Source of the DNA: Geothrix terrae
Lineage (GTDB): Bacteria; Acidobacteriota; Holophagae; Holophagales; Holophagaceae
Direction: 5' to 3'
NCBI RefSeq assembly: GCF_022808775.1
Contig: NZ_JAKZLA010000005.1
Span: forward strand, 1-64,000
Length of the DNA stretch: 64,000 bases
Made by a program: the position numbers and the translations under genes. Positions 1,358-2,897 of this stretch are shown here, piece by piece. How positions within the stretch are numbered: the stretch's first letter is position 1; every line of letters starts with the position of its first letter. Under the pieces are notes generated by a model. That model was not told the origin of the DNA, did no database searches, and worked only from the letters and a program-made list of their open reading frames with translations.

Positions 1358-2194
1358 TTATCGGCCAAACCCGGCATCGACTTTATCCATGAAGTCCCTA
1401 ATCCTGATCACGAATCCTTTGGGATCCTCGACAGGGTAGGCATGTCCGATGCCCGTCACGATCTCGAAGCGGCTGCCGGGAATGCGCTGGGCCGTCCCCA
1501 GGCATTTCCAGGGGGGGGTGAGGAGATCCTCGGCACCCGAGAGCACCAGGACCGGATCTTGGATGAGACTCAGACGCTCACAGATATCCCACCCCAGGAT
1601 TCCCCGGATCTGGTGCAGGTTACCGTGCATGGGCTTTCCGACGCCGCCCGTCACCACTTGGTGGTAGGCCCGCAGGACGCCGTGCCGAGCCTCCAGGAAC
1701 GCGTCGCCCCACAGGAATGGCGCCACGGCGTCGAACTGCATGAGGGGCCCGCCCACCTCCAGGCAGCGGGCCCAGTGCTCGGCCTTGAGGGCCATGGCGA
1801 AGTCGATGCGGGGCATGGCGCTTGTGAGCACCGCCCCGGCGAAGGCGCCGGGATGGGTGGTGAGCAGCTCCAGGCTCATGGCGCTCCCGTTGGAGAGGCC
1901 CAGCAGCCAGGGCCGCTCCACGCCCAGGATCTGGAATAGCTCCCAGGCCTCCGCGGCCATCAGGGCGGTGGGATAGGGGCCGTCCTCGGGCGCGTCCGAC
2001 TTCCCCTGCCCCCGGCTGTCGAAGGTGAGGACGCGGTAGCGGCCCGTCAGGCCTGGCAGCACGCCGGCCCACATGGTGGTGTCCGACAACAGGCCGTTCA
2101 GCAGCACGAGCCAGGGACCATGGGGGTTCCCCTGGACGCGGTAGTGGAGCTTCAGGCCCGAACGGAGCGTGGCGAAGGTCGGGGCCGGCCTCAC
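1358..2194 (-). CDS. Alpha/beta-fold hydrolase (intact copy)
   Basis: A 278-residue alpha/beta hydrolase of the 3-oxoadipate enol-lactonase/esterase type; the substrate is unknown. The oxyanion region is LLNGLLSDTTMW (about 31-42), the nucleophile elbow is GLSNGS with Ser near 101, the acid is probably Asp in SGAEDLLTPP, and the His is in GIGHAYPVEDP close to the C-terminus. The start is GTG, preceded by GAGG at 7 bp. That GTG overlaps the TGA of the truncated upstream copy (GTGA), so translation could be coupled. A 100-bp stretch of its 5' end is repeated almost perfectly 230 bp upstream. The hydrolase fold is secure; the reaction is not. Confidence 0.85.
   Translation of the reverse strand: MRPAPTFATLRSGLKLHYRVQGNPHGPWLVLLNGLLSDTTMWAGVLPGLTGRYRVLTFDSRGQGKSDAPEDGPYPTALMAAEAWELFQILGVERPWLLGLSNGSAMSLELLTTHPGAFAGAVLTSAMPRIDFAMALKAEHWARCLEVGGPLMQFDAVAPFLWGDAFLEARHGVLRAYHQVVTGGVGKPMHGNLHQIRGILGWDICERLSLIQDPVLVLSGAEDLLTPPWKCLGTAQRIPGSRFEIVTGIGHAYPVEDPKGFVIRIRDFMDKVDAGFGR
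2068..2167. repeat. Direct repeat, copy A (intact hydrolase 5' end)
   Basis: One hundred bases matching 2298-2397 with a single mismatch (position 2078 G against 2308 C). The offset is 230 bp. It covers roughly codons 10-42 of the hydrolase. Similarity drops sharply on both sides. Confidence 0.95.
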
Positions 2195-2234
2195 TTTTGC
2201 GCCTCGCTGTGTGGGCCCTGACTACCCCCCGATC

Positions 2235-2257
2235 GCGCAGGACATCTCGTCCTGCGC
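2235..2257. repeat. Hairpin in the duplication spacer (REP-like)
   Basis: GCGCAGGAC and GTCCTGCGC form a perfect 9-bp stem around a 5-base loop. CGATCGCG occurs on both flanks (near 2230 and 2278). The sequence between the two hydrolase copies resembles neither neighbour and may be a small palindromic repeat left at a recombination junction. Confidence 0.6.
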
Positions 2258-2297
2258 TCCCGCTCCTCGCTCCGCTCGATCGCGGAGGGGGCCCCGT

Positions 2298-2397
2298 CCC
2301 ACATGGTCGTGTCCGACAACAGGCCGTTCAGCAGCACGAGCCAGGGACCATGGGGGTTCCCCTGGACGCGGTAGTGGAGCTTCAGGCCCGAACGGAG
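2298..2397. repeat. Direct repeat, copy B (truncated hydrolase)
   Basis: The partner of 2068-2167, 99 of 100 bases identical. It lies directly downstream of sixA on the minus strand and is followed by a spacer of about 95 bp that carries a perfect 9-bp hairpin. Confidence 0.95.
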
Positions 2398-2423
2398 GGG
2401 GACGAAGGTGGGCTGGGGTCGCA

Positions 2424-2897
2424 TCAGCCCCTCAGTTCCGATGGCTGGTACTGCGTCTCGAAGCGCCAGGCGCCGTCCTCCCAGCGGATGACGGTGCAGC
2501 CGGCCTTCTTCACTTCGAGGCTGCGGCCCGTGAGGTGGAAGATCAGCTCGCCGAGAAAGGGTTGGTGGCTGACGAGGGCCAGCACGCCGCCCGGCATCTC
2601 CGCCGCCAGCCCGCGCAGCCAGAGGTCGGCCTGCGGAGGGCGGCTCTCGGGCAGGACCAGCAAGGAGGTCTCCATCGGGAAGACCCCGGCGGCTTCCTGG
2701 AGGCAGGCCATGGTCTCCATGGCGCGCCGGTAGGGGCTGCTGAACCCCCTGGTGGGACGGTGGCCGCGGGCCACAAGCCCCTTCATGGCCGCGCGGGTCC
2801 TGGTCCAGCCTTCCCGGGTCAGGGGCCGGTCCGCATCGCGCTGGCCGGGCCGGCCATCCTCTGCGATGCCGTGGCGGATGAGCAGGATCGAAGTCAT
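2424..2897 (-). CDS. sixA: Phosphohistidine phosphatase SixA-like
   Basis: A 157-residue single-domain histidine phosphatase of the SixA type. The N-terminal LIRHGIAED carries the catalytic RHG (about residues 7-9). Arg in SSPYRRAMET and the second His in LVSHQPFLGEL complete the usual set. Length fits SixA (about 160). SixA removes phosphate from phosphohistidine, in E. coli on phosphotransfer proteins; the local target is unknown. The gene starts 9 bp after the thioesterase stop and its TGA overlaps the ATG of the truncated hydrolase, so thioesterase-sixA-hydrolase looks like one operon. Confidence 0.85.
   Translation of the reverse strand: MTSILLIRHGIAEDGRPGQRDADRPLTREGWTRTRAAMKGLVARGHRPTRGFSSPYRRAMETMACLQEAAGVFPMETSLLVLPESRPPQADLWLRGLAAEMPGGVLALVSHQPFLGELIFHLTGRSLEVKKAGCTVIRWEDGAWRFETQYQPSELRG

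What the first reader, a model, noticed from the sequence alone, without database searches (positions are those of the whole stretch)
2068..2424. Recent partial duplication of a hydrolase gene with preserved stop-start coupling
One hundred bp with one mismatch are repeated 230 bp apart, but the first nine codons differ in many places. The truncated copy holds the sixA overlap (ATGA) and its own stop overlaps the GTG of the intact copy (GTGA). This mosaic suggests recombination or gene conversion between diverged copies rather than simple tandem duplication.
Basis: seen in the sequence. Interest (0 to 1): 0.6.

Follow-up and report, generated by a model that had tools for sequence, protein, structure and literature searches.

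The report
Guide-carrying mobile element splitting genes
A tiny folded DNA element has jumped into the start of a bacterial gene, pushed the old start aside and supplied a borrowed new one, and it carries beside it a short sequence complementary to the spot it entered, as relatives of it do in many other genes.

Summary
Between the two hydrolase starts lies a 78-nt folded element (window 2220-2297, minus strand). It recurs across Geothrix/Holophagaceae: 46 of 47 genus genomes match. Of 119 analysed copies, 108 abut a duplicated gene end flush at their ACGGGG side; the intact gene lies on the GTAGTC side. Targets include miaB, recR, mutL and queE-like genes and tRNAs. At the window site, 5 of 45 genomes with the gene are filled and scattered on the tree. 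Copy A is the displaced native start. Copy B is foreign at its outer 31/48/63 nt (three genomes) and native inside. Elements there are 95-97% alike while host flanks are 71-92%. The spacer after GTAGTC is antisense to the intact target across the insertion point: 14 families 0/20,000 permutations, 16 independent families 0/20,000, and it tracks target changes (0/5,000). Base pairs covary. No RT, Y1 transposase, TnpB, Piwi or IS110 was found in this genome. Best reading: a horizontally spreading, guide-directed homing element that brings a replacement gene end; its machinery is unknown.

The parts
2424..2897 (-). SixA-like histidine phosphatase, upstream gene
   Evidence: Pfam PF00300, 1.7e-12; ORF
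2298..2424 (-). Copy A: displaced native 5' end of the hydrolase gene, cut off by the element
   Evidence: matches the uninterrupted sixA-hydrolase junction of relatives, e.g. L123
2220..2297 (-). Element E, 78 nt, ACGGGGCCCC...GGGGGTAGTC, predicted three-way junction
   Evidence: models R1/R2; covariation on 70 and on 18 sequences
2195..2219 (-). Spacer; its start holds the antisense guide (best run at 2210-2217, GGCCCACA)
   Evidence: complementary to 2066-2073; spacer identical to G007's over 25 nt
2066..2073 (-). Target stretch in the intact gene, spanning insertion point S (between 2068 and 2067)
2164..2194 (-). Outer part of copy B (about 31 nt with the GTG start), foreign, came with the element
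   Evidence: differs from copy A at 11 of 30 nt; resembles the same part in G001 and G007 (25 of 30 each)
2068..2163 (-). Inner part of copy B, duplicate of the host's own sequence
   Evidence: 1 mismatch to copy A
2191..2424 (-). Leader frame: native start, through E and spacer, stop overlapping the new start (GTGA)
1358..2194 (-). Intact alpha/beta hydrolase with the replaced 5' end
   Evidence: Pfam PF00561, 4e-23

Best explanation
The locus holds a member of a family of small (about 70-90 nt), non-coding, structured mobile elements of Holophagaceae. The mobile unit is E + antisense guide/spacer + a replacement end of the target gene. SHOWN: the unit sits at a fixed point S in a given gene, E's ACGGGG end flush against the native gene end, which is displaced as a remnant. 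The gene stays intact through the end carried by the unit, often with stop-start coupling kept. The unit has spread between species, and the replacement end is foreign outside and host-derived near S. The spacer is complementary to the uninterrupted target across S and follows its changes. INFERRED: E plus guide, as RNA or single strand, pairs with one strand of the conserved site and directs a cut at S; the A end is joined to E's 5' end; the other side is sealed by homology between the carried gene end and the target, copying the host's S-proximal stretch a second time. The effector (trans protein, host repair or E itself) is unknown.
For: Flush duplication in 108 of 119 copies, control windows scoring about 9-17 in most rows; 34 of 43 rows in a second set by the same cut. 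Distance from GTAGTC to S nearly constant per target family, e.g. 69 nt in 14 of 15 miaB sites, the other being a tandem. Empty sites in relatives. Mosaic with genome-specific switch points; mismatch rises with distance from S over 41 sites, 0.013/0.024/0.052 then 0.35. Carriers need at least 4 changes on the gene tree. E identity exceeds host identity. Guide: 0/20,000, peak at S; 0/20,000; the direct strand shows nothing there; 18 of 25 families at or below 0.05 against local windows; tracks own target, 0/5,000. Fold: (15 of 19 pairs change on both sides); a U.G pair kept 18 of 18.
Against: No effector found. 7 of 25 families show no significant guide, including family 9 and the representatives chosen for families 1 (0.08), 5 and 15. 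Many guides carry a bulge or mismatch near S. The intact target persists beside the guide, so cutting must be avoided or rare. Within-family tracking rests mainly on families 0 and 3. In one search the direct-strand control was also slightly raised (162 of 20,000). Outer-B likeness between carriers (25-26 of 30) is only a little above the best empty site (23-25 of 30) for three carriers; for G045 it does not hold (20-22 of 30 to other carriers, 28 of 30 to an empty site). Three copies sit in-frame or in a gene without any duplication (L056, L086, L116). Tandem units could come from unequal crossing-over between A and B rather than re-insertion.
Confidence: 0.66

Rival explanations
1. Passive spread by transformation: foreign DNA with E next to a gene end recombines by homology on the gene side and joins illegitimately on the E side (homology-facilitated illegitimate recombination). 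E's fold merely fixes the breakpoint and the guide acts at most as a splint.
For: Explains one homologous and one non-homologous side, the mosaic and the duplicated host stretch; no dedicated enzyme was found; such recombination is described (listing and abstract start of PMC3240628).
Against: Does not predict the same point S in many species nor antisense complementarity across S that follows target changes.
Confidence: 0.2
2. The antisense spacer is an imprint: during insertion a polymerase switched strands at S, copied a short reverse complement, then switched back upstream. It is a scar, not a guide.
For: Explains reverse complement plus duplication in one event; small gaps near S would be junction errors.
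Against: The miaB spacers of L251, L253 and L265 share a missing base yet differ where their targets differ; spacers are inherited with E across species; fixed place 1-3 nt after GTAGTC in most families.
Confidence: 0.12
3. Ordinary REP/REPIN- or MITE-like repeat with a long target-site duplication.
For: Short hairpin repeat, many copies, GTAG tetranucleotide present.
Against: No Y1 transposase in this genome and in only 5 of 47; duplication 20 to over 200 nt with a foreign outer part; sites are specific gene points.
Confidence: 0.04
4. Assembly artefact or simple recent tandem duplication of the gene start.
For: Two near-identical stretches 230 bp apart.
Against: The same arrangement in independent genomes with their own sequences and own switch points.
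Confidence: 0.01

Closest known systems
Mobile ORF elements that carry foreign gene ends in fungal mitochondria (Glomus atp6/atp9/cox2/nad3; Allomyces atp6), PMC3630166, passages read
   Same: An insert splits a conserved gene near its end, brings a foreign replacement end, and leaves the native end displaced beyond it; horizontal spread.
   Different: Those inserts encode a homing endonuclease. Here the unit is about 100-300 nt, codes for no protein of its own, and carries an antisense match to its site; it is bacterial and hits both 5' and 3' gene ends and tRNA genes.
REP/REPIN elements with RAYT transposases (PMC3733652, PMC3116915; listing and abstract start only)
   Same: Small hairpin repeats, non-autonomous, many copies.
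   Different: No Y1 transposase in this genome; not intergenic-only; flanked by gene-end duplications; site-specific.
RNA-guided mobile elements (TnpB/IscB, IS110 bridge RNA) and intron guide sequences (recalled)
   Same: Structured RNA-like scaffold next to a sequence pairing with the target across the insertion point.
   Different: No TnpB or IS110 protein found in this genome (IscB undecided); the guide sits beside a 70-90 nt element with no ORF.
Mitochondrial double-hairpin elements (listing only)
   Same: Short mobile hairpin elements.
   Different: No replacement gene end or target guide known to me (recall).

Membership tests
REP/REPIN-RAYT | Y1 (RAYT-type) transposase in the genome | tested here: not met
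   PF01797: none in G000, 5 of 47 genomes; control rings in 5 of 14
Retroelement / group II intron / DGR | reverse transcriptase in the genome | tested here: not met
   PF00078: none in G000, 15 of 47 genomes
IS200/IS605 TnpB guide system | TnpB-like nuclease | tested here: not met
   PF07282: none in G000, 6 of 47
IscB/HEARO | IscB-like nuclease (RRXRR) | tested here: inconclusive
   PF14239: 0 of 47, but no control genome rang
Argonaute-guided system | Piwi domain | tested here: not met
   PF02171: 0 of 47; control rings in 1 of 14
IS110 bridge-RNA system | DEDD recombinase | tested here: not met
   PF01548: none in G000, 6 of 47
Mitochondrial mobile-ORF gene hybrids | foreign gene end inserted, native end displaced | tested here: met
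Mitochondrial mobile-ORF gene hybrids | homing endonuclease ORF inside the insert | tested here: not met
   insert of 78 nt plus 25-nt spacer; only the read-through leader frame
Known RNA family (Rfam 15) | covariance-model match | tested here: not met
   window 2100-2500: only two sub-threshold chance-level matches; other copies not searched
Plasmid- or virus-borne element | presence on plasmids or viral contigs | tested here: not met
   PLSDB distant search none; two exact patterns in IMG/VR none

The most novel reading that the evidence does not exclude
E plus its spacer is a self-contained guide RNA or ribozyme, acting without a dedicated protein or with an unknown one, that homes into conserved DNA sites by base pairing. 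It protects its host by supplying a replacement gene end with translational coupling: a natural, protein-free, nucleic-acid-guided homing element in bacteria.
Probability: 0.35. Interest if true: 0.96.

Novelty: categorically new. Interest (0 to 1): 0.86.

Why it matters
If right, bacteria carry a kind of selfish DNA that needs almost no sequence of its own: a folded scaffold, a short antisense guide and a spare gene end. It would add a class to nucleic-acid-guided mobile DNA, show how a homing element can invade essential genes harmlessly, and explain mosaic gene starts and ends and unexplained leader frames in Acidobacteriota. It is directly testable in cultured Geothrix strains.

Tried and rejected
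Simple tandem duplication and artefact (rejected). RAYT, RT, TnpB, Piwi and IS110 as partners (absent from this genome); IscB undecided. Plasmids and viruses as carriers (nothing). Rfam: nothing. Cis-acting mRNA antisense as the guide's role: rejected, because in families 3, 4, 6 and 7 the target gene runs the other way, so the guide has the mRNA's sense there. The second sub-type (GGGGGCCCCGCTCC...GGGGGCAGCC) gave no clear guide at the modelled position and was not pursued. One gradient computation (last line) ignored an offset and was replaced. One search failed on a file name and was redone. Literature: five searches aimed at this element or close analogues listed nothing describing it; subscription papers are mostly not held.

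Full report
Observation. On the minus strand the order is sixA (2897-2424), a truncated hydrolase start (copy A, 2424-2298), 103 nt, then the intact hydrolase (2194-1358). The 119-nt direct repeat at 95% identity with spacing 230 is confirmed. The copies differ at 11 of the first 30 nt and 1 of the next 97. The junctions are TGATG (sixA/copy A) and GTGA (leader stop/intact start).

The element. The 103 nt consist of a 78-nt element E (2297-2220) and a 25-nt spacer. A DNA search found 10 matches in the own genome; a covariance model found 24 at E <= 0.1. 23 of those 24 loci show a direct repeat nearby, L031 not. In the genus 46 of 47 genomes match. In a draw of 396 genomes of the phylum 34 match: 26 of the own genus, five more of the family, three of another family. 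The pattern scan of named genomes returned 80 stretches, nearly all titled Geothrix, Holophagaceae or Acidobacteria, one Pseudonocardia MAG (the listing may be capped at 80). No Rfam match at the window locus.

The fold. Three helices around a junction: P1 CCCCN/NGGGG, P2 UCCGC/GCGGG, P3 a long hairpin. On 70 model-fitted copies, 15 of 19 pairs change on both sides and the covariation score is 0.477 against 0.147 shuffled. On 18 copies chosen to span the target families and aligned independently the score is 0.469 against 0.141, with 0 of 500 shuffles. One U.G pair is kept in 18 of 18, which hints at RNA rather than DNA; this is inference.

The arrangement is general. I cut flanks for 120 copies and analysed 119 (one lacked flank). 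108 have a direct repeat ending within 3 nt of E's ACGGGG end with score at least 18; a control flank 250 bp upstream scores about 9-17 in most rows. The 11 exceptions are second units of tandems, copies inside genes without duplication, or unclear cases. 104 of the 108 were grouped into 24 clusters, some of them tandem neighbours or single sites. The distance from GTAGTC to the insertion point S is nearly fixed within a family (69 in miaB; 152 at the window site). Targets named by Pfam include RecR, MutL, an M24 peptidase, a thioesterase and a phage-integrase-like protein; miaB and queE are my reading of UPF0004/radical-SAM matches and sequence. tRNA genes lie at or beside several other copies. 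In a second set of 43 rows 34 pass the same cut.

Which copy is native. The hydrolase was found in 45 of 47 genus genomes; the extra partial copy appears in 5 (G000, G001, G004, G007, G045). In relatives the sixA-hydrolase junction is uninterrupted and looks like copy A (30 loci printed, of which 26 empty ones were used). In G007 copy A equals the nearest empty relative at 30 of 30 outer nt, while copy B's outer part differs from it at 10 of 30 and its inner part at almost none. The switch from foreign to native lies at about nt 31, 48 and 63 in G000, G001 and G007. In G045 it is diffuse, and its outer B is closer to an empty site (28 of 30) than to other carriers. On the tree of the downstream gene (31 rows) the five carriers need at least four changes, and G007 sits between two empty relatives. 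Between carriers E is 95-97% identical, host flanks 71-92%.

The guide. The sequence starting 1-3 nt after GTAGTC is antisense to the intact target across S. Over 14 target families the mean score is 8.18 against 5.18 (sd 0.33) with targets permuted, 0 of 20,000; the score peaks at S and is near background at shifts of 20 nt or more; the same-strand control is slightly raised (162 of 20,000). In 16 further families from outside the genus the gapped score is 17.56 against 10.91 (sd 0.84), 0 of 20,000, with no same-strand signal (11,311 of 20,000). Clear cases pair over 17-18 nt with one unpaired base near S (L253, L265, L257). Against local windows of the same loci 18 of 25 families are at or below 0.05 and 16 at or below 0.01; those above 0.05 are families 1 (0.08), 5, 9, 15 and loci L250, L261, L267. 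Within families guides fit their own target better than their sister's (1700 against 1612, sd 15, 0 of 5,000), carried mainly by families 0 and 3. Sequence relatedness may contribute to that last test.

Coupling. In families hit at the 5' end, the frame from the native start often runs through E and spacer and stops exactly at the restored start: all 15 miaB sites (13 as ATGA, 2 as TGATG), 5 of 5 in family 9, 4 of 4 here, 1 of 6 in family 5. In families 2 and 12 it stops at the TAG of GTAGTC shortly before the start; in family 1 at that TAG or inside E, in the other five of family 5 inside E.

Mechanism. Shown: mobility, site specificity, displacement of the native end, foreign outer and native inner parts of the new end, antisense spacer, conserved fold. 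Inferred: pairing of E+guide with one DNA strand at S (gene orientation does not matter, so mRNA is not the target), a cut at S, joining of the A end to E, sealing by homology on the other side. Searches for RT, Y1 transposase, TnpB, Piwi and IS110 in this genome were negative; IscB is undecided. The effector is unknown.

Known relatives. The closest layout I found in print is in fungal mitochondria, where mobile ORFs carry foreign C-termini and displace the native one (PMC3630166, passages), but those encode an endonuclease. Paper searches aimed at such an element in Geothrix/Acidobacteria or at guide-carrying homing elements listed no description of it.

Noticed in passing
L116 (G030:C3:166889-166963): A copy of E sits in-frame inside a NuoL-like reading frame (my reading of the sequence), adding about 25 residues, with no duplicated gene end; one extra base in GTTAGTC fits the frame.
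   Followed up: partly
L056 (G015) and L086 (G027): E inserted at the same point of an ORF6N-like gene (name recalled) in two genomes without duplication or guide; by hand it reads through in L056.
   Followed up: partly
G000:C8:465410-465795 and other loci (L019, L020, L022, L023, L025, L026): A second sub-type (GGGGGCCCCGCTCC...GGGGGCAGCC) with the same flush gene-end duplications, sometimes in tandem; its guide, if any, was not located.
   Followed up: no
L017, L267, L278, L281, L287: tRNA genes (Ala, Thr, Arg) lie at or beside duplicated ends next to elements, so tRNA genes seem to be targets too.
   Followed up: partly
L035, L038, L051, L065, L066, L100: Two units in tandem at one site; may be re-insertion into the restored target or unequal crossing-over between copies A and B.
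   Followed up: no
L161 (Pseudonocardia MAG), L254 (G148, another family of the phylum): Elements in distant taxa; contamination of the metagenome bins was not checked.
   Followed up: no
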